Shown here: positions 41,523-59,950 of the stretch, one piece after another
How positions within the stretch are numbered: the first letter of the stretch is position 1
Layout: each line of letters starts with the position of its first letter
Origin: Marinibacterium anthonyi
Lineage (GTDB): Bacteria > Pseudomonadota > Alphaproteobacteria > Rhodobacterales > Rhodobacteraceae
Assembly: GCA_003217735.2 (NCBI GenBank)
Contig: CP031593.1
Location: forward strand, 1 to 64,000
Direction of reading: 5' to 3'
DNA length: 64,000 nt
Position numbers and translations under genes: made by a program
Notes under the pieces: model-generated
What the model was told of the DNA's origin: nothing
The model's database searches: none
The model's input: only the letters and a program-made list of their open reading frames with translations

Positions 41523-42836
41523 ATGCTGGACGGGTCACGCCGGATGCACCTGGTCGCTTACCTCAAGACCGGCCCCACCGCGCGCCATGTCGGCGGCTGG
41601 CGCCACCCCGAGGCGGTGCTTGACGATTTCCTGACGCCGCAGCGTTATGCCGACACGGCCCGGATGCTGGAGGCGGCGAAATTCGACGGCTGCTTCTTTG
41701 CCGATCTCTTCGGGCTTTACGACATCCACCGCGGCAGCCACGAGGCCTACGTGCGCCATGGCGGGCAGGTCAGCTGGCTTGATCCCAAGGTCGTGCTGCC
41801 GGTGATGGCGGGCGCGACGACGCACCTGGGTCTGGGCGCCACCCTGTCGACCACCTTCCACATGCCCTATGAACTCGCCCGCTGGCTGGGCTCGCTTGAC
41901 GTGATGAGCGGCGGGCGGGTGGCCTGGAACGTCGTGACCTCGGCCACCGACCTTGAGGCGAAGAACGCCGGGATCGACCGGCTGCCGGACAGGCAGGAAC
42001 GCTATGATCGCGCCGACGAGGTGCTGGAGGCCTGTTTCAGGCTCTGGGACAGCTGGGACGAGGATCCGTTCATCCTGGACAAGACGGCCGGGGTCTTTGC
42101 CGATCCGGACAAGGTGCACTACGCCAATTACGAAGGCCGCTACGTGCGCACGCGCGGGCCGCTGTCGGTGCCGCGGTCTGCGCAGGGGCGGCCGGTGATC
42201 ATGCAGGCCGGCAGTTCGGACCGGGGCCGCGATTTCGCCGCCCGCTGGGCCGAGGCGATCTTTACCGCCCATCGCGGGATCGCGGACATGCAGGCCTTTT
42301 CCACCGATATCCGCACGCGGATGGCCGACCTGGGGCGCGACCCCGGTGACGTCAAGATCCTGACCGCCACCTCGGTCGTGCTGGGCGAAACCGAAAGCAT
42401 CGCGCGTGAACGGGCCGACTACCTGGCAAGCCTGGTAGAGCCGGAACTGGCGACCGCCAATTCCTCAAGCCGCCTGGGCGCCGACCTGACGAAACTGGCC
42501 GAAGGCAGGTCCTTGGCCGACCTGCAGGGCAACCAGGGCATCAAGGGATCGCAACTGCTGCTGGAACAGACCATGAAGGCCGAAGGCGTCAGCCTGGCGC
42601 AGGCAGCGGCGGGTGCCGGGCAAAGCGAGATCGTCGGCACGGCGGAAACCGTGGCGGACCGGCTGGAAGAGATGTTCGTGTCGGGCGGCTGCGACGGCTT
42701 TGTCGTGGCGCCCACCTATCACCCCGGTATGTTCGAACAATTCTGCCGCTCGGTCGTCCCCGAGCTGCAGCGCCGCGGCTTGTTCCGCACCCAATACCGT
42801 GCATCCACCTTGCGCGGCAATCTTCGTGACGGATGA
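41523..42836 (+). CDS. LLM-class flavin monooxygenase (NtaA/SnaA/DszA group), first copy
   Basis: This 437-residue protein belongs to the two-component, luciferase-like FMNH2-dependent monooxygenases. Seen are HVGGWRHPEA, DGCFFADLFGLYD, AWNVVTSATDLEAKNAG and RYDRADEVLEACFRLWDSWDED, with PVIMQAGSSDRGRDFAA near the flavin phosphate site. Relatives oxidise EDTA-like chelators, sulfones, pristinamycin or pyrimidines. The start MLDGSRRMHL at 41523 lacks a close ribosome site, but homology begins at MHLVAY. It is the first gene of an operon with a polar amino-acid-type transporter and a second LLM enzyme. A flavin reductase is not found nearby. Confidence 0.86.
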   Translation: MLDGSRRMHLVAYLKTGPTARHVGGWRHPEAVLDDFLTPQRYADTARMLEAAKFDGCFFADLFGLYDIHRGSHEAYVRHGGQVSWLDPKVVLPVMAGATTHLGLGATLSTTFHMPYELARWLGSLDVMSGGRVAWNVVTSATDLEAKNAGIDRLPDRQERYDRADEVLEACFRLWDSWDEDPFILDKTAGVFADPDKVHYANYEGRYVRTRGPLSVPRSAQGRPVIMQAGSSDRGRDFAARWAEAIFTAHRGIADMQAFSTDIRTRMADLGRDPGDVKILTATSVVLGETESIARERADYLASLVEPELATANSSSRLGADLTKLAEGRSLADLQGNQGIKGSQLLLEQTMKAEGVSLAQAAAGAGQSEIVGTAETVADRLEEMFVSGGCDGFVVAPTYHPGMFEQFCRSVVPELQRRGLFRTQYRASTLRGNLRDG

Positions 42837-42894
42837 CACCGTCGCGTCCAACAGGGACGGCGGCCCCGGCCGTCCAAGCAAAGGAAAGTCAGAC

Positions 42895-43758
42895 ATGAAA
42901 TTCGCCTCACTCACCTCGGGACTGGCCGTTCTGGCCATCGCCTTTGCCGGCGCCATGGCGCAGGCCGAAGAGATCGCCGTGGTGTCCGAAGCCCGTGACG
43001 CCCTGCCCGACGACATCAGGGACGCCGGTGTCCTGAACATCGCGACCTCGCTGCAATGGGCGCCCTTCGGCTTTACCGACGAAAGCGGCGAACCCGAAGG
43101 CATCGACCTGCAGCTGATGACCCTGCTGGCGGCGAAACTGGGGCTGGAAGCGCAGTTCAACGACATCAAGTTCCCTTCGATCGTGCCCGGCGTGCAGACC
43201 GGCCGTTATGATGCCGGGGTCAACCAGATGGGCATCACCGCCGAACGGTCCGAAGTCGTGTCCTTCGTGCCCTACTTCAATTCGAAATACGGCCTGCTGG
43301 TGCCCGCCGGCAAATCCGACACCGACATCAACGACCTTTGCGGCCTGAAACTGGCGCTGACGCAGGGCTCCAGCCAGATCGCCATCGCCGAGGAACTGTC
43401 GGCCAAGTGCGAAGCCGACGGCAAGACGCCGATCGCGATGGATTTCTACCCGAACTCGGCCGACACCTACATGGCCGTGGCCAACGGCCGGGGCGATGGG
43501 TTCCTGACCGCGCGCGCCGTGGGCGTCTATACCGCGCAGCACAACGACAAGCTGGAAATGACCGACGGCATCCTGGACGGGCGCAGCTCGATTTCCGGCA
43601 TCGTGGTGGGCAAGGATGACGCGGCCCTGCAAAACGCCCTGACCCTCGCGCTGGTCAGCGCGATCAACGACGGGACCTATGCCAAGATCCTCGACAATTT
43701 CGGCGTGCCCGAAGGCATCCTGACCGTCGAGCAGGTCGAGACCCCGCCGAGCTTCTGA
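42895..43758 (+). CDS. Polar amino-acid-type ABC substrate-binding protein
   Basis: This 287-residue protein has a signal peptide (LAIAFAGAMAQAEE, cleaved near residue 24) and the family 3 solute-binding fold: LNIATSLQWAPFGFTDESGEPEGIDLQLM, GRYDAGVNQMGITAERSEVV and LALTQGSSQ. Such proteins usually bind amino acids, but members also take up opines and aromatic or heterocyclic acids. The operon suggests the substrate is the compound oxidised by the flanking monooxygenases. An 88-base gap with a hairpin separates it from the permease gene. Confidence 0.88.
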   Translation: MKFASLTSGLAVLAIAFAGAMAQAEEIAVVSEARDALPDDIRDAGVLNIATSLQWAPFGFTDESGEPEGIDLQLMTLLAAKLGLEAQFNDIKFPSIVPGVQTGRYDAGVNQMGITAERSEVVSFVPYFNSKYGLLVPAGKSDTDINDLCGLKLALTQGSSQIAIAEELSAKCEADGKTPIAMDFYPNSADTYMAVANGRGDGFLTARAVGVYTAQHNDKLEMTDGILDGRSSISGIVVGKDDAALQNALTLALVSAINDGTYAKILDNFGVPEGILTVEQVETPPSF

Positions 43759-43798
43759 CGCTGGCCCTGAACAGGCATCCTGATAACGAAAACCGCTT

Positions 43799-43820
43799 CG
43801 GACGGCCGTCGGGCCGCCCG
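43799..43820 (+). terminator. Intercistronic hairpin after the binding-protein gene
   Basis: CGGACGGCC at 43799-43807 pairs with GGCCGCCCG at 43812-43820 (one mismatch) around GTCG, 40 bases after the binding-protein stop and before the permease gene. It matches the placement of hairpins in the other two sugar ABC operons of the window. Confidence 0.5.
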
Positions 43821-43846
43821 AACGACAGCAAAAGGACAAGACCCAG

Positions 43847-44749
43847 ATGACCATGGCGCCGCCGAGCGATGGCACGCAGGACCGCACGGGCGGCGTTCCA
43901 AGGGACGTGCCGGCGATCCTGAAACGCAGCAACCCCTGGCGCTGGCTGGGCGTTGCGGTGGTCGTGCTGGTGCTGGCCTGGATCGCCTTCCAGATCCTGA
44001 CCAACCCGGGTTTCGAATGGGACGTGGTGGGCAGGTACATGTTCCACCCCAGCGTGCTGAAGGGCGTCGGCACGACGCTGTGGCTGACCGCGCTGGTGAT
44101 GATCATGGGGATCCTGCTGGGCATCGTGATCGCGGTGATGCGGCTGTCCTCCGACAGGATGCTCAGCGGCACCGCCATCGCGTTCGTCTGGTTCTTCCGG
44201 GGCACGCCGGTGCTGGTGCAACTGGTCTTCTGGTACAACCTTGCCGCCATCTTCCCCGATATCTCCCTTGGCATCCCCTTCGGCGGCCCGAAAGTCTTTG
44301 AAATCTCCGCGACCGTGGCGATTTCCTCCTTCACCGCCGCCCTGCTGGGGCTGGGTTTCAACGAAGGCGCCTACATGGCCGAAATCATTCGCGCCGGTCT
44401 GACGTCGGTCGATCCGGGCCAGACCGAGGCGTCCAAGGCGCTGGGTCACAAGCCCTGGCAGACCTTCCGCGTTATCGTGCTGCCGCAGGCGATGAAGGCC
44501 ATCATCCCGCCCACCGGCAACCAGGTGATCGGGATGCTGAAATACACCTCGCTGGCCTCCGTCGTGGCATTGGGAGAGCTGATGCATTCGGTCGAGACCA
44601 TATACTCCCGCACCTTCCAGACCATGCCGCTGCTGATCGTGGCCGCGCTGTGGTATCTGATCCTGGTCTCGATCCTGTCGGTCATCCAGTACTACATCGA
44701 ACGCCACTATTCGCGCGGCTGGAAGATCCAGTCGAACACGGCGGCCTGA
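43847..44749 (+). CDS. Polar amino-acid-type ABC permease
   Basis: This 300-residue protein has a cytoplasmic N-terminal tail of about 40 residues, then 5-6 helices of the HisM/GlnP type. Family motifs include GTTLWLTALVMIMGILLGIVIAVM, FVWFFRGTPVLVQLVFWYN and the EAA loop (EASKALGHKPWQTFRVIVLPQAMK). Only one permease gene is present, so it should act as a homodimer with the ATPase encoded 13 bases downstream. Confidence 0.89.
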   Translation: MTMAPPSDGTQDRTGGVPRDVPAILKRSNPWRWLGVAVVVLVLAWIAFQILTNPGFEWDVVGRYMFHPSVLKGVGTTLWLTALVMIMGILLGIVIAVMRLSSDRMLSGTAIAFVWFFRGTPVLVQLVFWYNLAAIFPDISLGIPFGGPKVFEISATVAISSFTAALLGLGFNEGAYMAEIIRAGLTSVDPGQTEASKALGHKPWQTFRVIVLPQAMKAIIPPTGNQVIGMLKYTSLASVVALGELMHSVETIYSRTFQTMPLLIVAALWYLILVSILSVIQYYIERHYSRGWKIQSNTAA

Positions 44750-44762
44750 GGAGATGCGCGAC

Positions 44763-45548
44763 ATGGAGACCAACGAACCGCTGATCCGCGCCATCGACAT
44801 CTGGATGAACCGGGGCGAGAACGTCGTGCTGAAAGGCGTCTCGCTTCAGGCGCAAAAGGGCGAGGTCATCGCGCTTCTGGGGCCTTCGGGTGCGGGCAAG
44901 TCGACGTTGCTGCGGTGCATGAACGCCATCGAACTTGCCGACCGGGGGCTGGTGGTGCTGGACGGCGAGACCATCGGCTGCACCAGGGTGGGTGAGGAAT
45001 ACTACCGCCTGCCGGAAAGGGAGCTGAGCCGCCAGCGGGCCGAGATCGGCATGGTGTTCCAGAACTTCAACCTGTTCCCCCACATGTCGGTGCTGGAAAA
45101 CATCATCGACGCGCCGATGCGCGTGCGTCGCACGCGCAAGAAAGAGGCCGTCGCCAAGGCACACGAACTGCTTGCCCGCGTGCGGCTGTCGGACAAGGCC
45201 GACGCCTATCCCCGGCACCTGTCGGGCGGCCAGCAGCAGCGCATCGCCATCGCGCGGGCGCTGGCGATGAACCCCAAGGTGATGCTGTTCGATGAACCGA
45301 CCTCGGCGCTGGACCCGCACCTGACCGACGAGGTTCTGGACGTGATCCGCGAACTGGCCGAAACCGGGATGACCATGATCATCGTCACCCACGAGGTCCA
45401 GTTCGCCCGCGACGTGGCGCACAAGGTCGCCGTGATGGGCGACGGCACGATCATGGAAATGGGCCCCCCGGACGAGGTGCTGCGCGCGCCGAAAGACCCG
45501 CGCGTGCAGGAATTCCTGGCCCGGTCCCTGAAGGAGATGAACGCATGA
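44763..45548 (+). CDS. Polar amino-acid-type ABC ATPase
   Basis: This 261-residue ATPase has Walker A at residues 40-48 (GPSGAGKST), HLSGGQQQRIAIARAL and VMLFDEPTSALDP, followed by MIIVTHEVQFARDVA, as in GlnQ/HisP. The start at 44763 (METNEPL) is preferred to the ATG at 44754 because the GAGGAG ribosome site at 44748-44753 is 9 bases before the former and touches the latter. It overlaps the next gene by ATGA. Confidence 0.9.
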   Translation: METNEPLIRAIDIWMNRGENVVLKGVSLQAQKGEVIALLGPSGAGKSTLLRCMNAIELADRGLVVLDGETIGCTRVGEEYYRLPERELSRQRAEIGMVFQNFNLFPHMSVLENIIDAPMRVRRTRKKEAVAKAHELLARVRLSDKADAYPRHLSGGQQQRIAIARALAMNPKVMLFDEPTSALDPHLTDEVLDVIRELAETGMTMIIVTHEVQFARDVAHKVAVMGDGTIMEMGPPDEVLRAPKDPRVQEFLARSLKEMNA

Positions 45549-46102
45549 CCACCGAAGACTGGCTTTTCGTGATCGACATCCAGCCGGCGTTTTCCGACCC
45601 GGCCAGCCCGTGGTTCTGCGCCGCGCTCGACGCGGCCAAGGCCAATATCGCCCGCCTTCTGCCCGCCTACGGCGACCGCGTGCTGTTTTCGCGCTTTGTC
45701 CCGCCGGAACAGGTGTTCGGTGCCTGGATCGAATATTACGACACCTGGGCCTTTGCGCTTCCCCCCGAGGCCAAGCCGCTGTGGAGCGTGGACGAACCCT
45801 GGGGCCATTACCCCAGCATGCAAAGCCACACGCTGTCCAAGTGGGTTCCGGCCGCGAAACAGATGCTGCCCGAGGACGCCACCATCGCGCTGTGCGGCGT
45901 GTCGACCGATTGCTGCGTCATGTCGACGGCGCTGGCCGCCATCGACGACGGCCGCCGCGTTCGGCTGATCGAAGACGCCTGCGCCGCCGGCAGCGAAGAG
46001 ATTCAGCGCCAGTCGGTCGAGCTGATGCGCCTGCGCGCGCCGATGCTGACCGTGACGGACACCCAAAAGGAACTGGCAAGGGCCGGGGCCGGGGCCGTCT
46101 GA
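45545..46102 (+). CDS. Isochorismatase-fold cysteine hydrolase
   Basis: This 185-residue protein has the triad positions of the isochorismatase-like amidohydrolases: Asp11 (FVIDIQPAF), Lys99 (LSKW) and a Cys at 124 in GVSTDCCVMSTALAAIDDG. Relatives include nicotinamidase and RutB, the ureidoacrylate amidohydrolase. It overlaps the transporter ATPase by ATGA and is followed by an LLM monooxygenase, an arrangement reminiscent of the RutA-RutB pair that opens uracil. It probably cleaves an amide or ring-opened product of the monooxygenases. Substrate unknown. Confidence 0.85.
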   Translation: MTTEDWLFVIDIQPAFSDPASPWFCAALDAAKANIARLLPAYGDRVLFSRFVPPEQVFGAWIEYYDTWAFALPPEAKPLWSVDEPWGHYPSMQSHTLSKWVPAAKQMLPEDATIALCGVSTDCCVMSTALAAIDDGRRVRLIEDACAAGSEEIQRQSVELMRLRAPMLTVTDTQKELARAGAGAV

Positions 46103-46129
46103 CGGCCAAAGACTGAAAAGGAATGGAAG

Positions 46130-47452
46130 ATGGCTGAAATGATGCATCTGGGCACGATCGTCGGCGCCGCCGGGCACCACGTGGCCGGCTGGCGCATGCC
46201 GGATGCCGAATTCGGGTCCGAGAACCTCGACCTGATCACCCGCATCGTGAAGACCTGGGAAGACGCAAAGTTCGACCTGATCTTCTTTGCCGACGCCGTG
46301 AACACCGGCCTCGACGCGCACCCGACCCACATGCTGCGGCTGGAACCGCTGACGCTGCTGGGGGCGCTCTGCATGACGACGTCGCGCATCGGGATCGTGG
46401 CGACGGTGTCGACCACCTATTCCGAACCCTACAACGTCGCCCGGATGCTGGCGTCCATCGACCACATGAGCAAGGGACGCGGCGGCTGGAACGTGGTGAC
46501 GGGCTCCAGCCCCGACGCGGCGGCGAACTTCGGGTCCGATCCGCATCCCGAACACGCCACCCGCTATGAACGCGCCGGCGAATACCTTCGGGTCGTCAAG
46601 GGCCTCTGGGACACCTGGGAAGACGACGCCTATATCGCCGACAAGGCCACGGGCCGCTACGTGGACGGTGCCAAGATGCACCTGCTGGACCACAAGGGCC
46701 CGCATTTTTCGGTCCGTGGCCCGCTGAACATCTCGCGCCCGCCCCAGGGCTATCCGGTGATCATGCAGGCCGGCGCGTCGGACACCGGCAAGGCTTTCGC
46801 CGCCGCCTCGGCCGAGGTCGTGTTCGCGACCCAGCAGGTGCTGGAAGACGCCGTTGCCTTCGCCGAAGACCTGCGCGACCGCACCGAAGCCGCCGGCCGC
46901 CCCCGCGACGACATCCGCCTGATGCTGGGCGTCGCCCCGGTCATCGGCAAGACCCGGCAAGAGGCGCAGGCCAAGCTTTCCGAACTGGCCGCCCTGATCG
47001 ATCCGGTGACGGCGCTGCGCGTGCTGTCGGACCGGATCGGGACGGACCTGTCGGGCTATGACCTGGACGGCCCGGTGCCGGACCTGCCGCCGTCCGGCAT
47101 GATGCAGGGCCATGCGGTGGTGCTGCAGGCCGTGGCGAAGAAACACGACATGACCATCCGCGAACTGCGCGATTACGCTGCCGTTTCCTCGGGCCACCGT
47201 CTGGTCTTTGGCACGCCCGAAGACGTGGCCGACGATCTGGAAACCTGGTGGCGGGCCGGCGCCTGTGACGGGTTCATCATCCTGCCGTCCTATTACATGC
47301 AGCCGCAGATCGATTTCTGCGACCGGGTGGTCCCGATCCTGCAGCAACGGGGCATCTTCCGCACCGAATACACCGGCACCACCCTGCGCGACCACCTCGG
47401 CCTCGCCCGTCCGGCGCACCCCGCCGCGGCGGCCGAAACCGAATGCGCCTGA
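46130..47452 (+). CDS. LLM-class flavin monooxygenase (NtaA/SnaA/DszA group), second copy
   Basis: This 440-residue protein is a paralogue of the enzyme at the head of the operon. Motifs are AGHHVAGWRMPDAE, DLIFFADAVNTG, GRGGWNVVTGSSPDAAANFG, RYERAGEYLRVVKGLWDTWEDDA and PVIMQAGASDTGKAFAA. Both share the C-terminal pattern GACDGFIILPSYYMQPQIDFCDRVVPILQQRG and GLFRT/GIFRTEYTG-like ends. A GAAAAGGAA ribosome site precedes the ATG. Two different LLM enzymes in one operon suggest two sequential oxygenations or alternative substrates. Confidence 0.87.
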   Translation: MAEMMHLGTIVGAAGHHVAGWRMPDAEFGSENLDLITRIVKTWEDAKFDLIFFADAVNTGLDAHPTHMLRLEPLTLLGALCMTTSRIGIVATVSTTYSEPYNVARMLASIDHMSKGRGGWNVVTGSSPDAAANFGSDPHPEHATRYERAGEYLRVVKGLWDTWEDDAYIADKATGRYVDGAKMHLLDHKGPHFSVRGPLNISRPPQGYPVIMQAGASDTGKAFAAASAEVVFATQQVLEDAVAFAEDLRDRTEAAGRPRDDIRLMLGVAPVIGKTRQEAQAKLSELAALIDPVTALRVLSDRIGTDLSGYDLDGPVPDLPPSGMMQGHAVVLQAVAKKHDMTIRELRDYAAVSSGHRLVFGTPEDVADDLETWWRAGACDGFIILPSYYMQPQIDFCDRVVPILQQRGIFRTEYTGTTLRDHLGLARPAHPAAAAETECA

Positions 47453-47459
47453 GGCCCGC

Positions 47460-47924
47460 GTGTCCCTGCGCCTGACGGTGAATGGCAAGGAGGTCACGCT
47501 CGACCTCCCTCCCGGCACGACGCTTCTTGAGGCGTTGCGGTCCGATCTTGGCCTGCACGGGCCGAAGTACGGCTGCGGCCTGGCCCAATGCGGCGCCTGT
47601 TCCGTCCTGGTGGACGGACAGGTGGCGCGGGCCTGCGTCATGCAGGCGTCGTCCGCCGAAGGGCGCAAGGTCACCACGCTGGAAGGGCTGGGCGGCGATC
47701 ACCCGGTGCAGCGGGCCTTCATCGACTGCCAGGCGGCCCAATGCGGCTATTGCCTGAACGGCATGATCATGCAGACCGTGGCGCTGTTGCAGGCCATCCC
47801 CAGCCCTGACGAAACCACCATCCGCCGCGCCCTTCGTCACAACCTCTGCCGCTGCGGTACGCATCTGGAAATCCTTGCCGCCGTGCGCCGCGCGGTGACG
47901 CTGACCGCCGGGGATACGCAATGA
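47460..47924 (+). CDS. NicA-like [2Fe-2S] subunit of a molybdenum hydroxylase
   Basis: This 154-residue protein carries the two [2Fe-2S] clusters of xanthine-oxidase-family small subunits. Cys39, Cys44, Cys47 and Cys59 (GCGLAQCGACSV then RAC) bind the plant-ferredoxin-type cluster; AAQCGYCLNG and NLCRCGTHLE bind the second. It starts at a GTG 5 bases after the preceding stop. It overlaps the large-subunit gene by ATGA. With a cytochrome-fused partner this is the two-subunit NicAB plan of Pseudomonas nicotinate hydroxylase, so ring hydroxylation of an N-heterocycle is the likely reaction. Confidence 0.88.
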   Translation: MSLRLTVNGKEVTLDLPPGTTLLEALRSDLGLHGPKYGCGLAQCGACSVLVDGQVARACVMQASSAEGRKVTTLEGLGGDHPVQRAFIDCQAAQCGYCLNGMIMQTVALLQAIPSPDETTIRRALRHNLCRCGTHLEILAAVRRAVTLTAGDTQ

Positions 47925-50900
47925 ACGACGCGGCGATCACCATCTGGCGGCAGGGGAAATCCGGCGCCGAGATCCTGTTGCAGGTCGCGCCCAACGGCGA
48001 TGCCACCGGTTTCAACGGCCACGTGGACCTTGGCACCGGCCTGCGCACCGCCTTCGTCCAGATCGTCGCCGAGGAACTGGACCTGCCCCCGTCGCGCGTG
48101 CGTGTCGTGATGGGCGATACCGCCCGGACGCCGGACCAGGGGCCGACCATCGCCTCGGAATCCATCCAGATCGCCGCTGTCCCCCTGCGCCAGGCCGCCG
48201 CCCAGGCGCGGGCGATCCTGGCCGACCTCGCCAGCGCCCGGCTGAACGCCGGGCTGGAGGATCTGGAATTCCGCGACGGTTCCATCGGAACCGACCAGGC
48301 GACAGCCGGCTTTGCCGACCTTCTGGCCGACGTCAGCGTCTCGGTCGAACTGGACACCGCTGCCCGGGTCAAGACGCCCGCCGAATACCGCCTTGTCGGC
48401 ACCTCTTCCCCCCGGGTCGATCTGGCGGGCAAGGCCACCGGGGCATGGACCTATGTCCACGACGTCGCAATGCCCGGCATGCTGCACGGCCACGTCATCC
48501 GGCCCCCCTACGCGGGCCGCGACAGTGGCGATTTCATCGCCCGCAGCCTGCTGGAGTATGACGAAGCGGCAGTGGCGGAAATGCCCGGCTTTGTCGCCCT
48601 TGTCCGCAAGGGCGATTTCCTGGGCGTCGTGGCCCTGCGCGAAGGCCAGGCCCGCGCCATTGCCGAAACGTTGCCGGTCCGCTGGGCCACGCCCCCCGAC
48701 TTGCCCGACCTGACGGACATCCCCGGCACCCTGCGCGACATGCCGTCGGAAAAGCGCATGCTGACAGACCGGGGCGACGTGGACGGCGCGCTGGCCCGGG
48801 CACAGACACGACTGACCCGCAGCTATACATGGCCCTGGAACCTGCACGGCTCCATCGGGCCGTCCTGCGCCGTGGCCGACTGGCAGGGCGGGCGCCTGAC
48901 GATCTGGTCCGGCACCCAGAACCCCCACATGCTGCGCGGCGACATCGCCCAGCTGATGGAGCTGCCCGAAACCGCCGTCGAGATTGTCCGCCACGAGGCC
49001 GCCGGCTGTTTCGGTCGCAATTGCGCCGATGACGTCTGCGGCGACGCGGCGCTTCTGTCCCGCGCCGTGGGCCGCCCCGTCCGGGTCCAGCTGACCCGCG
49101 AACAGGAACACCTGTGGGAACCCAAGGGCGCCGCCCAGCTGATGGACGTCTCGGGCGGACTGGACGACACCAACACGTTCGACGTCTACGACTTTGAAAC
49201 CCGCTACCCGTCGAACCGCGGTCCCAACCTTGCGCTGCTTCTCACCGGCACCATCGATCCGGCCCCGCGCCCCTGCGACATGGGCGACCGCACGGCGATC
49301 CCGCCCTACCGCATCCCCAACCTGCGCGCCGCCGTCCACGACATGGCCCCCATCGTGCGGGCCAGCTGGTTCCGGGGCGTGTCGGCCATGCCGAACACCT
49401 TCGCGCATGAATGTTTCGTCGACGAACTCGCCGCCGAGGCGGGGGAAGACCCCGTCGACTTCCGCCTGCGCCACCTGGACGACCCGCGCACCATCGACCT
49501 GATCCGGCGCACCGCCGAGGAAGGCGGCTGGGTCCCCCGCACCGGCCCGCGCCTGGCAACGGACGGCGACATCGCCCGTGGCCAGGGTTTCGCCCATGCC
49601 ACATATGTCCACGGCCCCTTCCCCGGCGTCGCAGCCGCGCAGGCCGCGTGGCTGGCCGATATCTCGGTGAACAAAAGGACCGGAGAGGTCACGCTGGACC
49701 GCATCGTCGTGGCACAGGACCAGGGGCTGATGATCAACCCCGACGGCGTGCGCCACCAGATCAACGGCAACGTCGTCCAGTCGATCAGCCGCACCATGGG
49801 CGAAGACAGCCAGTTCGACCAGGCCGGATCCATCGACCGCGAATGGGGCGGCTATCCGCTCGCCCGGTTCGAGGACCTGCCCGAGGTCCGCACCCTGCTG
49901 GTCGAACGCCCCGAAGACCCGCCCCTGGGCGTCGGCGAAAGCGCCTCTGTCCCCTCGGCCGCCGCCATCGCCAACGCGATTTACGATGCCACGGGGGTCA
50001 GGATGCGCGAACTGCCCTTCACCCCCGAACGGGTCAAGGCGGCGCTGGACGGCGCGCCCATGCCAAGGGCGCTGCCCGCGCCTGAACCCGCCCCCCGCTG
50101 GAAGGGCATGGCCAAGGGCTTTGGCGCGGCAATTGCCGGCGGCCTCATGGTCGGCGCCGTGGGCTTCTCGATCAAGGCCGAGATCCCGCGCATCCCCCGA
50201 CCCGACAACATCTGGTCGGCCGAAACCCTGGACCGCGGTCGCCAGCTGTTCGCCGCCGGCGACTGTGCCGTCTGCCACACGGCCGAAGGCGGCATCCCCC
50301 TGACCGGCGGCCGGCCCATGGAAACCCCCTTCGGCACCGTCCACACCACCAACCTGACGCCGGATCCCGAAACCGGGCTTGGCGCATGGTCCTACCCCGC
50401 CTTCGCCCGCGCCATGCGCGACGGCATCTCGCGCGATGGCCGCCACCTGTATCCGGCCTTTCCCTACACGTCCTTCGCGAAGATGGCCGAAACCGACCTG
50501 CAGGCGCTTTACGCCTATATCCAGTCGCTCGACCCCGTCCGCGCCAAGGTCCCGCAAGCGAAGATGATCACGCCGGTGAACCTGCGCAGCTCCATGGCGG
50601 CCTGGAACGCGCTTTACCACGATCCGGCGCCGTTCATCCCGGACCCGGTGCAATCCGACCTGTGGAACCGGGGCGCCTACCTGGTCGAAGGCGTCGGCCA
50701 TTGTTCGGCCTGCCACAGCCCGCGCAACGCGCTGGGAGCCGAACGGAAAGGCGCCGCGCACCTGTCGGGCGGCGTGGTCGATGGCTGGCTGGCCCCGGCG
50801 CTGAACGGCACCGGACCGGCGCCGCTGAACTGGTCCGAAGCCGACTTTTACGATTACCTCCGCACCGGCGTGTCCATCCGCCACGGTGCCGCCGCCGGAC

Positions 50901-51373
50901 CGATGGCGCCGGTGATCGACGAATTGACCGCCCTGCCCGACGACGATCTGCGCGCCATGGCCCACTATCTGGCGTCGACAGGCCCCGACACGCCCGCCCC
51001 CATCACAGTCGATATCACCGCGTTCGACATGGCGCTGGAAACCGCCCAGGGCCCCGCCGCCCGCCTTTTCCGGGCCAGCTGCGGGTCGTGCCACATCGCC
51101 GGGCCGGTGCCGTCAGCCACCGCCGCCCGGGTGCCGCTGGGCTTGTCGACGGCTGTGCATGCCGATCGGCCCGACAACCTGGTCCGCGCCGTGATCGACG
51201 GATTGCCCGCCACCGGCACCACGGACCCGCGCACCATGCCCGCCTTCGGCCTGGCGCTGGACGCCACCCGCATCGCCCAGATCGCCCGTTTCCTGCGCCA
51301 GACTCTGGCACCGGACAAACCGGCCTGGACCGGCGTGGACGATGCCATCGCCAGGGCCCGCGCCGCGCCCTGA
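47921..51373 (+). CDS. NicB-like molybdopterin subunit fused to three cytochrome c domains
   Basis: This 1150-residue protein joins an aldehyde oxidase/xanthine dehydrogenase-type molybdenum domain (about residues 1-725; GSIGPSCAVADW, GCFGRNCADDVCGDAALL, GVGESASVPSAAAIANAIYDATG with the Mo-site Glu) to a membrane anchor (about 730-752, GFGAAIAGGLMVGAVGFSI) and three haem c sites: CAVCH at 782, CSACH at 928 and CGSCH at 1054. This equals the plan of Pseudomonas NicB, which passes electrons to the respiratory chain rather than to NAD or oxygen. The haem domains must be periplasmic, but no N-terminal signal is present, as also noted for NicB relatives. Substrate nicotinate is likely but other azaarenes are possible. 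Confidence 0.9.
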   Translation: MNDAAITIWRQGKSGAEILLQVAPNGDATGFNGHVDLGTGLRTAFVQIVAEELDLPPSRVRVVMGDTARTPDQGPTIASESIQIAAVPLRQAAAQARAILADLASARLNAGLEDLEFRDGSIGTDQATAGFADLLADVSVSVELDTAARVKTPAEYRLVGTSSPRVDLAGKATGAWTYVHDVAMPGMLHGHVIRPPYAGRDSGDFIARSLLEYDEAAVAEMPGFVALVRKGDFLGVVALREGQARAIAETLPVRWATPPDLPDLTDIPGTLRDMPSEKRMLTDRGDVDGALARAQTRLTRSYTWPWNLHGSIGPSCAVADWQGGRLTIWSGTQNPHMLRGDIAQLMELPETAVEIVRHEAAGCFGRNCADDVCGDAALLSRAVGRPVRVQLTREQEHLWEPKGAAQLMDVSGGLDDTNTFDVYDFETRYPSNRGPNLALLLTGTIDPAPRPCDMGDRTAIPPYRIPNLRAAVHDMAPIVRASWFRGVSAMPNTFAHECFVDELAAEAGEDPVDFRLRHLDDPRTIDLIRRTAEEGGWVPRTGPRLATDGDIARGQGFAHATYVHGPFPGVAAAQAAWLADISVNKRTGEVTLDRIVVAQDQGLMINPDGVRHQINGNVVQSISRTMGEDSQFDQAGSIDREWGGYPLARFEDLPEVRTLLVERPEDPPLGVGESASVPSAAAIANAIYDATGVRMRELPFTPERVKAALDGAPMPRALPAPEPAPRWKGMAKGFGAAIAGGLMVGAVGFSIKAEIPRIPRPDNIWSAETLDRGRQLFAAGDCAVCHTAEGGIPLTGGRPMETPFGTVHTTNLTPDPETGLGAWSYPAFARAMRDGISRDGRHLYPAFPYTSFAKMAETDLQALYAYIQSLDPVRAKVPQAKMITPVNLRSSMAAWNALYHDPAPFIPDPVQSDLWNRGAYLVEGVGHCSACHSPRNALGAERKGAAHLSGGVVDGWLAPALNGTGPAPLNWSEADFYDYLRTGVSIRHGAAAGPMAPVIDELTALPDDDLRAMAHYLASTGPDTPAPITVDITAFDMALETAQGPAARLFRASCGSCHIAGPVPSATAARVPLGLSTAVHADRPDNLVRAVIDGLPATGTTDPRTMPAFGLALDATRIAQIARFLRQTLAPDKPAWTGVDDAIARARAAP

Positions 51374-51582: not shown

Positions 51583-51585
51583 CCG

Positions 51586-55385: not shown

Positions 55386-55514
55386 CGGACCCTCCTGTGC
55401 GGTCATGACACCCGGACCCGGCGCCCGTGATGGTCCCGGTCTGCCCCGGCAGCAAGACCGGCCCCGGCGGGGCTGTCAATGGTCCGCACCGCCGGGACCG
55501 GCCCGCGCCTTACA

Positions 55515-55527
55515 TGTTCGTATACAA
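55515..55527 (-). promoter_or_regulatory. Box TTGTATACGAACA facing hyuA
   Basis: Read on the minus strand the sequence is TTGTATACGAACA. It matches the second box at 55703 in 12 of 13 bases and is oriented towards hyuA. A MarR-family regulator encoded at the end of the divergent operon is the obvious candidate to bind it. Confidence 0.6.
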
Positions 55528-55702
55528 ATGACATTGAGAGGACGATTCCCCACCCGGGCGGCTAAAAAACAGGCGACTCCGCCGCCGGCCGCGCATGCCC
55601 CGCTGGCAAAGCCGCTTTAACCGGCACCGAACCCTTGCAGCCCCCCGAAAGCTCCGGGCCGGCCGGCGAAGATCATTGACTTGGATCCGCGCCCATGGTC
55701 GC

Positions 55703-55715
55703 TTGTATGCGAACA
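55703..55715 (+). promoter_or_regulatory. Box TTGTATGCGAACA facing the reductase operon
   Basis: The site sits in CTTGTATGCGAACAAG (55702-55717), which has CTTGT/ACAAG symmetric ends, and lies about 70 bases before the reductase start. It is the partner of the box at 55515. Confidence 0.6.
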
Positions 55716-55785
55716 AGTTTGCCGTCACATACCTTACCGCCACATTCGCCCGCCGCAGCACGCGGTCGCAGAAAGGCCAGCCAAC

Positions 55786-57327
55786 GTGAGCGACACACCG
55801 ACCATCCCGGCGCCCGCCCCCCAGAAGATCCGCTGCGATGCCTGCCCCGTCATGTGCTACATCGCCGACGGCCGCGCCGGCGCCTGCGACCGCTATGCCA
55901 ACCACGACGGCCAGCTTGTCCGGCTCGACCCGCTCACCGTCATCGAGAACCGCGCCAGGACCGTGGGCGGCGCTGGCGGAGATGCAGATGGCGACATCCC
56001 CCTCGTGCCCTTCCTCGACACCACGTGGGACGGCTCCATCGTCGGCGGAGACCGCCAGTTCGTTACCGCCATCGGCGCCGGCACCACCTATCCCGACTAC
56101 AAGCCCGCGCCCTTCATCGTCGCCTCGGAATACGACGGCGTCGACATGGTCACCGTGGTGACCGAAGGCATCTTTTCCTACTGCGGCGCCAAGGTGAAGA
56201 TCGACACCGACCGCCACCTTGGATCGGAATGCGCGCCGGTGCGCGCCGACGGGCAGGTCGTGGGCCATGTCACCACGTCGGAATACGGCAGCCAGATGCT
56301 GTCGCTGGGCGGCGTCACCCACCTGACCGGCGGCGACAAGAAGGAAGGCCGGGTCACCTGCGCCACGCTTCTGGCGCTGTGCAACGGCGCAGCGGTCGAC
56401 CTGGCCATCGACGGCGGCGCCGAGGTCACCGTGCAGGCGGGCCAGGCGCCCGTCGTCAACGGGCTGCGCGAGGAACGCATGCGCGTGGGCTGCGGATCGG
56501 CCACCGTCGGCATCTTCGCCGCGCAATGGCAGGGGCTGGTCGATGAAGTCGTCGTCGTCGACGACCACATCACCGGCGTCATGAGCGAACACCAGGCCGG
56601 CAAGGTCATCGGCTGGGAGCCCACCGGCATCAAGATCCTCGGCCGCCGGTCCACCCCGGGCCGCTACTTCCAGGTGGCCGAACCCGGCACCGGCTGGGGC
56701 GGCACCGACATGACCGACCCGCTGACCATCCTGGGGCCGTGGAACCCCAAGATCGCGCGCCCCGGATTGTCGCTGCTCATGGTCTCGACCACCGGCGAAC
56801 ACGCCGCGTATTACGAGCTGGACGAAGACCTTCGCCCCGTCCGGATGGAGATCCCCGACCGCCTGATCCCCTCTACCCGCCGGATCGAGGAGAACTGCGA
56901 ACCGGCGCTGTGTTCCGTCCTGTTCATGGGCGGCGCGGGGGGCAGCCTGCGCGCCGGGGTCACCCGCAATCCCATCGGGCTGACCCGGTCGGTGCAGAAC
57001 GCCCTGACCCGCGTCACCGTCGGCGGCGCGCCGGCCTATGTCTGGCCCGGCGGCGGCATCACCCTGATGGCCGATGTCACGCAGATGCCGTCCAATGCCT
57101 TCGGCTATGTCCCCACCCCGGCACTGGTCGCCCCGATCGAGTTCACCCTGCGCCGCGCCGATTACGAAGCGCTTGGCGGCCACATGGACCATATCGTGCC
57201 GCTGTCCGAGGCGCTGGAGGGCACCCTTGGACGGCAAAGCGATCACGTGCTCTCGGGCCGCCGCGACGTGGCGCGCGCGCCCGGCGCCCCCTGGCCCGCC
57301 CGGCCCCTGAAGGGCCCGCGCGGATGA
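55786..57327 (+). CDS. 6-hydroxynicotinate reductase-like iron-sulfur protein
   Basis: This 513-residue protein begins with a cysteine cluster at 17, 20, 24 and 34 (CDACPVMCYIADGRAGAC), fit for a [4Fe-4S] cluster. The rest has no common domain I can name, but the whole pattern fits proteins annotated as 6-hydroxynicotinate reductase, which reduce the ring to 1,4,5,6-tetrahydro-6-oxonicotinate. The middle holds many glycine-rich turns (GGVTHLTGGDKKEGRVTC, GKVIGWEPTGIKILGRRSTPG). The GTG start at 55786 has an AAAGG ribosome site 9 bases upstream. It overlaps the UPF0280 gene by ATGA. The NicAB-like hydroxylase nearby would supply its substrate. The name rests on recalled annotation and context. 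Confidence 0.7.
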   Translation: MSDTPTIPAPAPQKIRCDACPVMCYIADGRAGACDRYANHDGQLVRLDPLTVIENRARTVGGAGGDADGDIPLVPFLDTTWDGSIVGGDRQFVTAIGAGTTYPDYKPAPFIVASEYDGVDMVTVVTEGIFSYCGAKVKIDTDRHLGSECAPVRADGQVVGHVTTSEYGSQMLSLGGVTHLTGGDKKEGRVTCATLLALCNGAAVDLAIDGGAEVTVQAGQAPVVNGLREERMRVGCGSATVGIFAAQWQGLVDEVVVVDDHITGVMSEHQAGKVIGWEPTGIKILGRRSTPGRYFQVAEPGTGWGGTDMTDPLTILGPWNPKIARPGLSLLMVSTTGEHAAYYELDEDLRPVRMEIPDRLIPSTRRIEENCEPALCSVLFMGGAGGSLRAGVTRNPIGLTRSVQNALTRVTVGGAPAYVWPGGGITLMADVTQMPSNAFGYVPTPALVAPIEFTLRRADYEALGGHMDHIVPLSEALEGTLGRQSDHVLSGRRDVARAPGAPWPARPLKGPRG

Positions 57328-58217
57328 CCCGGCCCGTCGATCGCGCCCTCGCCGGGATGTCCGCAGATGGTCGCCGGCTGCGCCTGACCCACGGGCCCAT
57401 CGACGTGATCCTCACCGCCGAGGGGCCCGATGCCGCCCGCCGGGCCGCCTTTGCCCGCGCCCGGGCCGCCTTTGGTCCGCTGTTGGGCGACCTTGTCACC
57501 GAACTGCCCCGGTTGCGCAGCGCCACCGGGCCCGACCTGCAAGGCCCCGTCGCCCGCCGCATGGCCACCGCCGTCGCCCCCTTTGCGCCCGCTTTCGTCA
57601 CCCCGATGGCCGCCGTCGCCGGATCCGTCGCCGATCACCTGCGCGACGCCGCCCTGTCCCCGGGCCAAGACGATGACCACGGGCTGACCAGCCTCATCGT
57701 CAACAACGGCGGCGACATCGCGCTGTGGCAGGCCACCGGCCAGCTGACCGCCGCCGTCTGCGACGACCCGATATCGGGCCGCGCGGGCACCCGCATCGCC
57801 ATTCCCGCCGGGTCGGGCATCGGCGGGCTTGCCACCTCGGGCTGGCGCGGGCGGTCGTTCTCTCTGGGCATCGCGGACGCCGTCACCGTGCTGGCGGATT
57901 GCGCCGCCACCGCCGACGCCGCCGCCACGCTGATCGCCAATGCCGTCGACCTGCCGGACCATCCCGCCATCCTGCGCACCCCGGCCCGCGACATCGCCCC
58001 CGACAGCGACCTGGGCGCCCGCCCCGTCACCATCGACGTCGCCCCCCTGTCCGTGCCCGACCGCCAGGGCGCCATCGACAGCGGCGCCCGCCTGGCCCAG
58101 GATTACCTGGACCGCGGCCTGATCCGCGCCGCCTATCTCTCGCTTGAAGACACCCGCGCCATCATCGCCTCCCAGACCGCCCCCCAAATCGCCTCCAAGG
58201 ACGCCCTCCATGCCTGA
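57324..58217 (+). CDS. UPF0280 family protein (ApbE-like fold)
   Basis: This 297-residue protein matches UPF0280: FVTPMAAVAGSVADHL, LIVNNGGDIALW, GLATSGWRGRSFSLGIADAVTVLADCAATADAAATLIANAVD. The family is distantly related to the FMN transferase ApbE and has no established reaction. It is coupled to the reductase gene by ATGA and overlaps the next gene by 8 bases. A role in flavin attachment or maturation of the reductase is a reasonable guess, given the ApbE relationship and strict coupling. Confidence 0.8.
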   Translation: MTRPVDRALAGMSADGRRLRLTHGPIDVILTAEGPDAARRAAFARARAAFGPLLGDLVTELPRLRSATGPDLQGPVARRMATAVAPFAPAFVTPMAAVAGSVADHLRDAALSPGQDDDHGLTSLIVNNGGDIALWQATGQLTAAVCDDPISGRAGTRIAIPAGSGIGGLATSGWRGRSFSLGIADAVTVLADCAATADAAATLIANAVDLPDHPAILRTPARDIAPDSDLGARPVTIDVAPLSVPDRQGAIDSGARLAQDYLDRGLIRAAYLSLEDTRAIIASQTAPQIASKDALHA

Positions 58218-58794
58218 ACCCGTCATCCGCAAGACCGCCCTGCAGCTGGAAACCATCTGGCACGACGGCGGACCCACCGCCGGCACGCCCCTGAAGAAGG
58301 CCGCCGCCATCGCCGTGATCGCCAACCCCTTCGCCGGCGCCTACCACGAGGACATCGCCGGCTTCATGGACGATCTCAAACCGCTGGGCCTGCGCATGGC
58401 GCAGGACCTGATCGACGCGCTTGGCGGTGACGCGTCGGCCATCCAGGGCTATGGCAAGGGCGCCATCGTCGGCACCAATGGCGAGTTGGAACACGGCGCG
58501 CTCTGGCACGTGCCCGGCGGCTATTCCATGCGCGAAAAGATCGCCGCCAGCGCCGCCATCGTGCCCTCGACCAAGAAGATCGGCGGCCCGGGCACCCGGC
58601 TTGACGTGCCCATCACCCACACCAACGCCTCCTACGTGCGGTCCCACTTCGACGCGATGGAGGTCGGGCTGGCGGACGGACCGAAGGCCGACGAGATCGC
58701 GCTGATCCTGGTCATGTCCACCGGGGCGCGCGTGCATGCCCGCGTCGGCGGGCTGGCCCATGACGACGTCAAGGGCGAGGACGGGCTGCGCTGA
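58210..58794 (+). CDS. AA_synth family protein (PF06684), first paralogue
   Basis: This 194-residue protein matches the 'amino acid synthesis' family by ANPFAGAYHEDIAGFMDDL, QGYGKGAIVGTNGELEHGALWHVPGG, SAAIVPSTKKIGGPGTRLDVPITHTNASYVRSHFDAMEV-type block (IGGPGTRLDVPITH) and a C-terminal RVGGLAHDDVKGEDGLR. The family name comes from a general guess; no reaction is proven to my knowledge. It overlaps both neighbours, and its paralogue follows directly. The pair may form a heteromer acting on a ring or ring-opened intermediate. Confidence 0.8.
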   Translation: MPEPVIRKTALQLETIWHDGGPTAGTPLKKAAAIAVIANPFAGAYHEDIAGFMDDLKPLGLRMAQDLIDALGGDASAIQGYGKGAIVGTNGELEHGALWHVPGGYSMREKIAASAAIVPSTKKIGGPGTRLDVPITHTNASYVRSHFDAMEVGLADGPKADEIALILVMSTGARVHARVGGLAHDDVKGEDGLR

Positions 58795-59399
58795 TGCCCG
58801 CAATGAAAGGGGCCCGGAACGGCGCGGTCATCCGCAAACTGGTGACCCTGGCCGAGACCACCGAACGCGAGATGGGCCGCCCGATTGCAGGCTGCCAGAA
58901 GGCCGCCGCCGCCGCCATCATCGCCAACCCCTGCGCCGGGCGCTACGTCGAGGACCTCTCGGAGCTGATCGACATCGGTGCCGCGATGGGCGACCTGCTG
59001 GCGCGCGAGGCCCTGGCCCTGATGCGCGTGGAGCCGTCCGCCATCCAGTCCTACGGCAAGGCCGCCCTGGTCGGCGAGAACGGCGAGCTGGAACATGCCG
59101 CCGCCCTGCTGCATCCTGCCCTCTGCGCGCCCCTGCGCGCCGTGCTCGGCGGCGGCGCCGCGCTGGTGCCCTCCTCCAAGGCCATCGGCGGGCCCGGCGA
59201 CATCCTCGACATCCCGCTTGGCCACAAGGACGCGGCCTACGTGCGGTCCCATTTCGACGGCATGCGCCTGCGCATCGCCGACGCGCCCCGCCTCGGCGAG
59301 ATCGTCATCGCCGTGGCGCTTGCCACCTCCGGCCGCCCCCTGCCCCGCGTCGGCGGGCTGACCCATGCCGCCGCGAAAGGCACCGACGGCCTGCGCTGA
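58794..59399 (+). CDS. AA_synth family protein (PF06684), second paralogue
   Basis: This 201-residue protein shares with its neighbour the block IANPCAGRYVEDLSELID, QSYGKAALVGENGELEHAAALLHP, VPSSKAIGGPGDILDIPLGHKDAAYVRSHFD and the end RVGGLTHAAAKGTDGLR. The start ATG shares one base with the preceding stop (TGATG). Loops between the conserved blocks differ, so the two are probably not redundant. A ring-modifying role is inferred only from operon membership. Confidence 0.8.
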   Translation: MPAMKGARNGAVIRKLVTLAETTEREMGRPIAGCQKAAAAAIIANPCAGRYVEDLSELIDIGAAMGDLLAREALALMRVEPSAIQSYGKAALVGENGELEHAAALLHPALCAPLRAVLGGGAALVPSSKAIGGPGDILDIPLGHKDAAYVRSHFDGMRLRIADAPRLGEIVIAVALATSGRPLPRVGGLTHAAAKGTDGLR

Positions 59400-59479
59400 G
59401 CCTGACCCAACGCCCGCATTGCGCCCGGCCGCCCCGACAGGCTATGGCTGACGCGGATACAACCAAAAGGAGAACCCGG

Positions 59480-59950
59480 GTGACCGACGACATCGACCCA
59501 GCGCCCCCGGAACCCACAGCCACCACCGGGTTCGACACCCGGGGCTATGTCCTCGACGCCCAGGTCGGCTTTCTCCTGCGCAAGGCCTACCAGCGCAACT
59601 CCCTGATCTTCGCCGACCTCATCCCCGGCAGCCTTACCACCACCCAGTTCTCCGTCATGTTCCGTCTCGCCGAACAGGGGCCCATGTCCCAGAACATGCT
59701 GGGCCGTTCCGTCGCCATGGACGGCGCCACCACAAAGGGCGTCGTCGACCGCCTCGTCGCCCGCGACATCCTGCGCACAGACCCCGACCCCGATGACCGC
59801 CGCCGCTACATCGTCTCCCTCACTCCAGACGGAGAAACCCTCCTCGCACAGGCCATCCACCGCGCGCACGAGGTCACAAGAACAACACTCTCGCCCCTGA
59901 AGCCGAACGAACGAAAAACCCTTCTCAGGCTGCTGGGAAAAATTACCTGA
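59480..59950 (+). CDS. MarR-family regulator
   Basis: This 156-residue protein has the MarR winged helix: TTTQFSVMFRLAEQGPMSQNMLGRSVAMDGATTKGVVDRLVARDILRTDPDPDDRRRYIVSLT-type arrangement, with the recognition segment (MDGATTKGVVDRL) and the wing motif DPDDRRRY clear. It starts at a GTG with an AAGGAG ribosome site 7 bases upstream. It is the last gene of the reductase operon, 80 bases after the second AA_synth gene. Pseudomonas nicotinate genes are controlled by a MarR repressor, NicR, so a matching role here is likely. Confidence 0.86.
   Translation: MTDDIDPAPPEPTATTGFDTRGYVLDAQVGFLLRKAYQRNSLIFADLIPGSLTTTQFSVMFRLAEQGPMSQNMLGRSVAMDGATTKGVVDRLVARDILRTDPDPDDRRRYIVSLTPDGETLLAQAIHRAHEVTRTTLSPLKPNERKTLLRLLGKIT

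What the first reader, a model, noticed from the sequence alone, without database searches (positions are those of the whole stretch)
41523..59950. Composite N-heteroaromatic degradation island with two divergent operon blocks
Seen: two LLM flavin monooxygenases, a polar amino-acid-type ABC importer, an isochorismatase-fold hydrolase, a NicA/NicB-like hydroxylase, HyuAB, a 6-hydroxynicotinate reductase-like protein, UPF0280, two AA_synth proteins and a MarR regulator, all contiguous. Known: NicAB hydroxylates nicotinate at C6; 6-hydroxynicotinate reductase makes 1,4,5,6-tetrahydro-6-oxonicotinate; HyuAB-type enzymes open lactams with ATP. Inferred: this is an aerobic route that reduces the ring instead of using the NicC-type monooxygenase, with LLM enzymes and the AA_synth pair in unassigned steps. 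The full combination is not one I recognise as described.
Basis: partly seen in the sequence, partly recalled or inferred. Interest (0 to 1): 0.85.

Follow-up and report, generated by a model that had tools for sequence, protein, structure and literature searches.

The report
Vitamin-B3 breakdown island with swapped ring-opener
A bacterium carries a gene island that probably breaks down nicotinic acid by first reducing its ring, a known route, but here and in 24 related genomes an ATP-using enzyme appears to have taken the place of the usual ring-opening hydrolase, and an importer with two extra oxygenases seems wired to the same switch.

Summary
The core (nicAB, hnr, UPF0280, two AA_synth, MarR) belongs to the aerobic reductive nicotinate cluster already described for Azorhizobium and Bradyrhizobiaceae (PMC3511419), so the route is not new. 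Two things look new. (1) The enamidase that normally opens the tetrahydro-6-oxonicotinate ring is missing and HyuAB stands in its place: of 95 hnr genomes searched, 68 have the enamidase, 25 have this HyuA, none has both, two degenerate cases have neither; the state changed about four times on the Hnr tree. (2) The LLM/importer/isochorismatase block is not part of the conserved cluster (both LLM genes in 0 of 100 loci), yet an operator motif learned from relatives' hnr promoters lies upstream of its first gene, and upstream of a related importer-LLM operon near the hnr cluster of a same-genus genome. It is probably wired into the nicotinate regulon in this lineage; its substrate is unknown. 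The MarR protein is close to BpsR, a repressor released by 6-hydroxynicotinate. Roles for UPF0280 and AA_synth are hypotheses. Nothing was tested experimentally.

The parts
41380..41397 (.). predicted MarR-type operator upstream of the g038 operon
   Evidence: matrix built from relatives' hnr promoters: 15.2 bits, best site of the 102-kb contig outside the hyuA-hnr region; 1 site >=14 in 247,825 control bases
41523..42836 (+). g038, LLM flavin monooxygenase, NtaA/DmoA type
   Evidence: Bac_luciferase, TIGR03860; 60% to an LLM gene about 8 kb beyond the MarR gene of the hnr cluster in G001
42895..43758 (+). g039, SBP_bac_3 solute-binding protein
   Evidence: Pfam
43847..44749 (+). g040, ABC permease, polar amino-acid type
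   Evidence: best NCBIfam model a cystine permease, below its cut-off
44754..45548 (+). g041, ABC ATPase
   Evidence: best NCBIfam model TcyN, below its cut-off
45545..46102 (+). g042, isochorismatase-fold cysteine hydrolase; Asp11, Lys99 and Cys123 look like the usual triad (triad recalled)
   Evidence: Pfam, sequence, PDB matches
46130..47452 (+). g043, LLM flavin monooxygenase, closest solved relatives YtnJ/MoxC
   Evidence: TIGR03860; PDB
47460..47924 (+). nicA-like [2Fe-2S] subunit of the hydroxylase
   Evidence: Pfam Fer2, Fer2_2
47921..51373 (+). nicB-like permuted molybdopterin subunit fused to a triheme cytochrome c
   Evidence: Pfam, CXXCH at 782, 928, 1054; best tblastn piece 53-56% to most NicB-type genes beside hnr in Bradyrhizobium and Azorhizobium loci, 59% in one short locus
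51586..53325 (-). hyuB, metal-site subunit of an ATP-dependent lactamase
   Evidence: Hydantoinase_B; His104, Asp107 and His129 fit the spacing of CapB metal ligands (ligands from PMC8453981)
53322..55385 (-). hyuA, ATP-binding subunit; predicted functional replacement of enamidase
   Evidence: Pfam; DxGGT at 15 and 289, GxxPGP at 353; exclusivity with enamidase
55512..55533 (.). predicted operator, hyuA side of the hyuA-hnr intergenic region
   Evidence: 17.7 and 15.8 bits, top two sites of the contig
55697..55718 (.). predicted operator, hnr side of the intergenic region
   Evidence: 13.5 and 11.7 bits
55786..57327 (+). hnr, 6-hydroxynicotinate reductase-like protein
   Evidence: 67-86% to nine homologues in hnr clusters; matches in 22 of 61 sampled genomes, the own one included
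57324..58217 (+). UPF0280/COG2122 protein
   Evidence: NCBIfam PRK04334.1-2, 305 bits, cut-off 290; PDB 2o34
58210..58794 (+). AA_synth (DUF1185) copy 1
   Evidence: Pfam; PDB 3byq, 2qtp
58803..59399 (+). AA_synth (DUF1185) copy 2
   Evidence: Pfam
59480..59950 (+). MarR regulator, BpsR-like
   Evidence: PDB 2nnn and 6pcp/6pco (BpsR) far ahead of the next match

Best explanation
The island is an aerobic reductive nicotinate catabolism regulon of the Azorhizobium/Bradyrhizobium kind in which the ring-opening enzyme has been replaced. NicAB hydroxylates nicotinate to 6-hydroxynicotinate; Hnr reduces this to 1,4,5,6-tetrahydro-6-oxonicotinate (THON); HyuAB, instead of enamidase, hydrolyses the THON lactam at the cost of ATP, giving aminomethylene-glutarate or 2-formylglutarate; further steps lead to glutarate. 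The MarR protein g053 probably binds operators at 41380, 55512 and 55697 and is released by 6-hydroxynicotinate or a close analogue. The importer, the two LLM monooxygenases and the isochorismatase-fold hydrolase are joined to the nicAB operon in this lineage and probably import and convert a nicotinate precursor. Shown by computation: gene content, enamidase/HyuA exclusivity, repeated exchange, operator matches. Inferred from families and papers: the reactions of NicAB, Hnr and enamidase, the glutarate end, the inducer. Hypothesis only: UPF0280 as a maturation factor of Hnr (a covalent flavin in the E. barkeri enzyme is recalled), AA_synth as enzymes of the 2-formyl/enamine stage, and the LLM substrate.
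For: Exclusivity: 95 hnr genomes, enamidase in 68, HyuA at >=62% identity in 25, both 0, neither 2; the other listed HyuA homologues lie at <=46%. Four changes of state on a quick Hnr tree, at least three forced by starred branches. The exchanged gene's closest solved relative is enamidase 2vun, E 2e-107. In Neorhizobium and Pleomorphomonas plasmids hyuAB directly follows hnr-UPF0280-AA_synth, and in Neorhizobium an operator starts 31 bp before hyuA. OplAB of the same family hydrolyses the six-membered delta-valerolactam with ATP (PMC11033972, passages). Operators lie upstream of nicA in four of four relatives looked at. g053 is close to BpsR, which binds 6-hydroxynicotinate.
Against: No enzyme was assayed. 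The genomes are related; only about four exchanges are independent. Two of four BpsR ligand contacts differ in g053 (Phe31 and Asn40 in place of His). S. medicae has a 62% HyuA with AA_synth, MarR and the operator in a 22-kb stretch without an annotated hnr, so this HyuA group may have another substrate there. Over 100 loci only 1 of 204 strong sites was assigned to a HyuA start, partly because hyuA often lies behind hydroxylase genes. ATP-driven opening is costlier and no reason for the exchange was found. Block A genes do not recur near hnr in the 100 loci, and g043's closest solved relative is YtnJ (organosulfur role recalled).
Confidence: 0.74

Rival explanations
1. Block A (g038-g043) is a separate organosulfur or other LLM/ABC acquisition module that landed in front of nicAB and shares only the promoter.
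For: g043 is closest to YtnJ/MoxC among solved proteins (YtnJ role recalled); the best NCBIfam models of permease and ATPase, below cut-off, are cystine transporters; the genome gives 23 matches to the g043 query, itself and short ones included; block A is absent from 100 hnr loci except one g042 homologue.
Against: A nic-type operator precedes g038. In same-genus G001 the motif (22.9 bits) precedes an ABC-LLM operon whose LLM is 60% identical to g038, about 8 kb from the hnr cluster, and an isochorismatase 48% identical to g042 directly follows the MarR gene. The window lacks the LIV-type importer that many other clusters have between AA_synth and MarR.
Confidence: 0.3
2. HyuAB acts on a different lactam or hydantoin and only co-occurs with hnr; THON is opened by an unrecognised enzyme.
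For: The HyuA family includes enzymes with other substrates; S. medicae has a 62% HyuA in a stretch without annotated hnr.
Against: Enamidase and this HyuA never occur together in 95 genomes and only two degenerate cases lack both, with repeated exchange.
Confidence: 0.15
3. The island serves another azaarene (isonicotinate, picolinate, isoquinoline or similar) rather than nicotinate.
For: The Mo-hydroxylase/cytochrome architecture is shared with other oxidoreductases: an aldehyde dehydrogenase, 8gy3, is the best solved match, ahead of nicotinate dehydrogenase 3hrd; no NicB of known activity could be compared here.
Against: hnr, with enamidase in sister clusters; the published nicotinate cluster; the BpsR-like regulator.
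Confidence: 0.1

Closest known systems
Aerobic nicotinate degradation cluster via THON (Azorhizobium caulinodans AZC_2804-2790, Bradyrhizobium, Rhodopseudomonas, strain SG-6C; PMC3511419)
   Same: [quoted passage not shown] same reductive chemistry
   Different: HyuAB instead of enamidase; no LIV-type importer between AA_synth and MarR; LLM, SBP3 importer and isochorismatase genes in the nicAB operon
Eubacterium barkeri nicotinate fermentation (Hnr, enamidase)
   Same: Hnr step and THON intermediate (PMC3511419 and PMC7356986 passages)
   Different: anaerobe; enamidase; later steps differ (recalled)
ATP-dependent lactamases CapAB, OplAB, HyuAB (PMC8453981, PMC11033972)
   Same: two subunits, ATP motifs, most of the CapB-like metal site; a six-membered lactam is a known OplAB substrate
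   Different: below the caprolactamase model cut-offs; place in a nicotinate regulon
Trigonelline (tgn) pathway of Acinetobacter baylyi
   Same: an AA_synth relative, TgnF (PMC7913881 passage), and an LLM oxygenase (recalled)
   Different: oxidative ring opening without Hnr or HyuAB (recalled)
BpsR/NicR MarR-type nicotinate regulators
   Same: closest solved sequences; two of four ligand contacts kept
   Different: two contacts differ; operators were not compared

Membership tests
Aerobic reductive nicotinate (THON) cluster | hnr beside a Mo hydroxylase | tested here: met
   g044/g045 and g049 lie 4.4 kb apart; same pairing in relatives
Aerobic reductive nicotinate (THON) cluster | enamidase for ring opening | tested here: not met
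   no enamidase in G000 at E<=1e-20; HyuAB present instead
Aerobic reductive nicotinate (THON) cluster | UPF0280 and AA_synth genes with hnr | tested here: met
   g050-g052; homologues in 96, 94 and 94 of 100 loci
Aerobic reductive nicotinate (THON) cluster | growth on nicotinate via THON | not testable with these tools
   needs culture work
ATP-dependent lactamase (HyuAB/OplAB/CapAB) | ATP-binding motifs DxGGT twice and GxxPGP in the A subunit | tested here: met
   motifs from PMC8453981
ATP-dependent lactamase (HyuAB/OplAB/CapAB) | Asp-His-Asp-His metal site in the B subunit | tested here: inconclusive
   His104, Asp107, His129 fit; the first Asp (43 or 50) is not at the exact CapB spacing
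Caprolactamase CapAB | NCBIfam CapA/CapB equivalog cut-offs | tested here: not met
   485 and 316 bits against 1000
BpsR-type 6-hydroxynicotinate sensor | Tyr15, His23, Arg26, His32 | tested here: inconclusive
   Tyr23 and Arg34 kept, Phe31 and Asn40 differ, by the phmmer register
Nicotinate dehydrogenase NicAB | small [2Fe-2S] subunit plus Mo subunit with three cytochrome c hemes (architecture recalled) | tested here: met
Nicotinate dehydrogenase NicAB | activity on nicotinate | not testable with these tools
   no tested NicAB sequence was compared
NtaA/DmoA LLM monooxygenases | TIGR03860 above cut-off | tested here: met

The most novel reading that the evidence does not exclude
The regulon couples an oxidative front end to reductive ring opening: imported N-substituted or amide-linked nicotinates are stripped by the LLM pair and the isochorismatase-fold hydrolase, fed to NicAB and Hnr, and opened by an ATP-dependent THON lactamase; UPF0280 matures Hnr (covalent flavin) and the AA_synth pair handles the 2-formylglutarate stage. 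This would give three uncharacterised families a role at once.
Probability: 0.2. Interest if true: 0.78.

Novelty: new variant of a known kind. Interest (0 to 1): 0.56.

Why it matters
If HyuAB opens THON, the hydantoinase/oxoprolinase family gains a new physiological substrate, and one pathway step is shown to have been swapped repeatedly between an ATP-free and an ATP-using enzyme. One assay would test it. The shared operator also gives a cheap way to find further members of the nicotinate regulon and to place the UPF0280 and AA_synth families, whose roles here are open.

Tried and rejected

g042 as a nicotinamidase: the metal-site motif of nicotinamidases (recalled) is not evident in its sequence, so it is not claimed.

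LLM relatives: no relative of g043 above 55% in 336 other class genomes (E<=1e-135) and none above 62% in plasmids; g038 relatives reach 71% and 74%. In the stretches of 11-25 kb read around such relatives no hnr match (L147-L150) or hnr annotation (L168) was seen. Rieske oxygenase: a match in 15 of 25 HyuA genomes, 13 of them at >=63% identity, and none in the other ten, among them G000, G001, G002, G373 and G374; a swap between Rieske and LLM front ends remains a guess.

Literature: the searches listed no paper that I saw to tie HyuAB to nicotinate; none of the 10 papers holds 'hydantoinase' at all. One search listed 30 of 43 and 15 of 26 papers; PMC6346535 (holds both 6-hydroxynicotinic acid and oxoprolinase) was not opened. 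All papers cited by PMC number were seen as passages, none in full. Alhapel 2006 and Perchat 2018 were not held.
Full report
What is there. The window is the first 64 kb of a 102,121-base contig of a 6.8-Mb genome. Gene calling gives, from 41523 to 59950: LLM, SBP3, permease, ATPase, isochorismatase, LLM, nicA, nicB on the plus strand with short gaps (LLM to nicA 7 bp, nicA and nicB overlapping); hyuB-hyuA on the minus strand; then hnr, UPF0280, AA_synth, AA_synth and MarR on the plus strand, the first three overlapping by a few bases. Families were checked with Pfam and NCBIfam. Upstream lie an inositol 2-dehydrogenase and a LacI gene; downstream a TauD-type gene, an adenylation/thioesterase/TPR protein and a PaoC-like Mo hydroxylase subunit.

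The core is known. PMC3511419 (passages) describes a nicotinate degradation cluster via THON conserved in Azorhizobium caulinodans and Bradyrhizobiaceae, found through the E. barkeri genes. hnr matches were found in 22 of 61 sampled genomes, the own one included; a scan of named genomes kept the best 80 of 581 confirmed stretches. I read 100 loci (L024-L123; L052 appears to repeat the contig of L025, having the same length). Homologues at >=38% identity over half the length were: UPF0280 96, AA_synth 94 and 94, small Fe-S subunit 81, MarR 75, NicB type 28, HyuA 17, HyuB 14; block A genes g038, g039, g040 and g043 0, g042 1. Contigs often end early, so these are lower bounds. Where hnr was called as a gene (85), UPF0280 was the next gene on the same strand in 79, in 35 of them with a 4-base overlap. 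Over half of the loci carry FAD-type hydroxylase genes (c5 in 59, c6 in 54 of 101 sets, the window's contig being one) where others have NicAB.

The swap. A recurring neighbour (cluster c9) is a close relative of enamidase 2vun (E 2e-107; its source E. barkeri recalled). I searched whole genomes with this enamidase and with the window's HyuA. First set, 47 handles of which 45 were held: enamidase 25 (one a contig-end piece), HyuA at >=70% 20, both 0, neither 0. Second set, 51 handles of which 50 were held (L116, L119, L120 left out for the cap, L052 as a repeat): enamidase 43 (a few in pieces), HyuA at >=62% 5, both 0, neither 2, namely G016, whose hnr match holds five stop codons, and G413, a 2.1-Mb bin. 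HyuA matches at 40-46% were not counted; among listed matches (E<=1e-150) nothing lies between 46 and 62%. I fixed no threshold in advance; the gap was seen in the output. Together 68, 25, 0 and 2 of 95. On a quick tree of 100 Hnr sequences, 93 of them labelled, the state needs 4 changes, at least 3 forced by starred branches, against about 22 in shuffles; the HyuA rows form groups of 16 and 6 and three single rows from a SAR116, a Rhodospirillaceae and a Granulosicoccaceae genome.

Why HyuAB fits the step. THON is a six-membered lactam. OplAB hydrolyses delta-valerolactam with ATP (PMC11033972, passages) and CapAB caprolactam (PMC8453981, passages). HyuA keeps both DxGGT motifs and GxxPGP; HyuB keeps His-x-x-Asp and the later His at the CapB spacing, but the first Asp is not at the exact distance. 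On annotated plasmids hyuAB follows hnr, UPF0280 and AA_synth in one direction (Neorhizobium NCHU2750; Pleomorphomonas SM30) and follows the hydroxylase genes in Sagittula.

Regulation. A symmetric motif was trained on the upstream regions of hnr in relatives (54 sites, 35 different when last built; window excluded, seed motif taken from the window). On the 102-kb contig its best sites are in the hyuA-hnr region and, at 15.2 bits, 143 bp upstream of g038: second of 23 intergenic regions; the frequency in shuffled copies of that region is 0.018. In 247,825 control bases, which were what I had at hand and not a random draw, one site reached 14 bits. The motif also precedes nicA in L024, L026, L044 and L045, with 12 to 20 bits. 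Of 204 strong sites in the 100 loci, assignments to gene starts within 400 bp were: FAD subunit 51, hnr 49, nicA-type 29, enamidase 29, reductase c13 24, MarR 13, Rieske 5, HyuA, AA_synth and c5 1 each, other genes 51, none 43 (a site can count more than once). In same-genus G001 the motif scores 22.9 upstream of an importer operon that ends in an LLM gene 60% identical to g038; that stretch, L154, is a second contig with the G001 hnr cluster and is not one of the 100 loci.

The regulator. g053 matches 2nnn and BpsR (6pcp, 6pco) at 2.5e-27 or better, the next at 6.6e-10. BpsR is released from DNA by 6-hydroxynicotinate and contacts it with Tyr15, His23, Arg26 and His32 (PMC6837509, passages). 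By the phmmer register Tyr and Arg are kept in g053; the other two are Phe and Asn. Among 67 MarR proteins of these loci, the window's included, Arg is kept in 65 of 65 with a letter there, Tyr in 58 of 60, and the last position is His in 50 and Asn in 13 of 65.

Block A. Both LLM proteins are TIGR03860 members. The query g043 finds 23 places in this genome, itself and short ones included. Neither LLM has a homologue near hnr in the 100 loci. Two readings stand: a precursor-processing front end of the nicotinate regulon, favoured by the operator, by the G001 operon and by the lack of the LIV-type importer that many other clusters have between AA_synth and MarR; or an organosulfur-type module that shares the promoter, favoured by the YtnJ resemblance of g043 and the cystine-type transporter models.

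UPF0280 and AA_synth. COG2122 is needed for homocysteine synthesis in Desulfovibrio and is distantly related to ApbE (PMC5764234, passages). I recall that E. barkeri Hnr carries a covalent flavin; the paper was not held. Maturation of Hnr is thus a possible but unproven role. AA_synth proteins are hexamers with a chorismate-mutase-like fold (PMC2954203, passages); TgnF of the trigonelline pathway is a relative (PMC7913881, passage). Both copies keep the conserved Glu-x-Glu-His and Arg-x-Gly-Gly stretches, so neither looks dead.

Limits. No experiment; no tested NicB or Hnr sequence for direct comparison; gene calls in relatives by a simple codon model that missed genes (hnr called in 85 of 100 loci); genomes that are not independent. 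The exclusivity is the strongest result; the LLM substrate is the weakest part.

Noticed in passing
L154:10496-18209 and L172:18958-22492: In same-genus G001 and in Pleomorphomonas SM30 a PotD-like binding protein and an MGH1/YgjK-like glycosidase (57% and 62% identical between the two) sit near the hnr cluster behind a nic-type operator, which hints at uptake of a glycosylated nicotinate.
   Followed up: partly
L154:8495-10492: In G001 the MarR gene is followed by an isochorismatase and a phosphorylase-superfamily gene with an operator before the latter: possible feeding from nicotinamide or its riboside.
   Followed up: partly
L171:9890-22037: Sinorhizobium medicae has a 62% HyuA with AA_synth, MarR, isochorismatase, two nucleoside hydrolases and a BMP-type importer, with the same operator before HyuA but no hnr annotated in the stretch.
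   Followed up: partly
loci L025, L046-L050, L052-L055, L088, L108 and others (cluster c12): 24 hnr loci carry a VanA-like Rieske oxygenase, often between AA_synth and the LIV importer, and 22 loci a ferredoxin-reductase-like gene (c13); possibly a demethylating front end.
   Followed up: partly
G016:C28:4385-5620: hnr-like stretch with four TAG and one TAA inside; this genome has neither the enamidase nor this HyuA.
   Followed up: no
G001:C9 and G001:C21: The G001 hnr cluster appears on two contigs with equal match scores, perhaps an assembly overlap; only the C9 copy was followed downstream.
   Followed up: no
window 60225-64000 and contig to 66785: A TauD-type oxygenase, a 1117-aa adenylation/PCP/thioesterase/TPR protein and a PaoC-like Mo hydroxylase subunit follow the island.
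   Followed up: no
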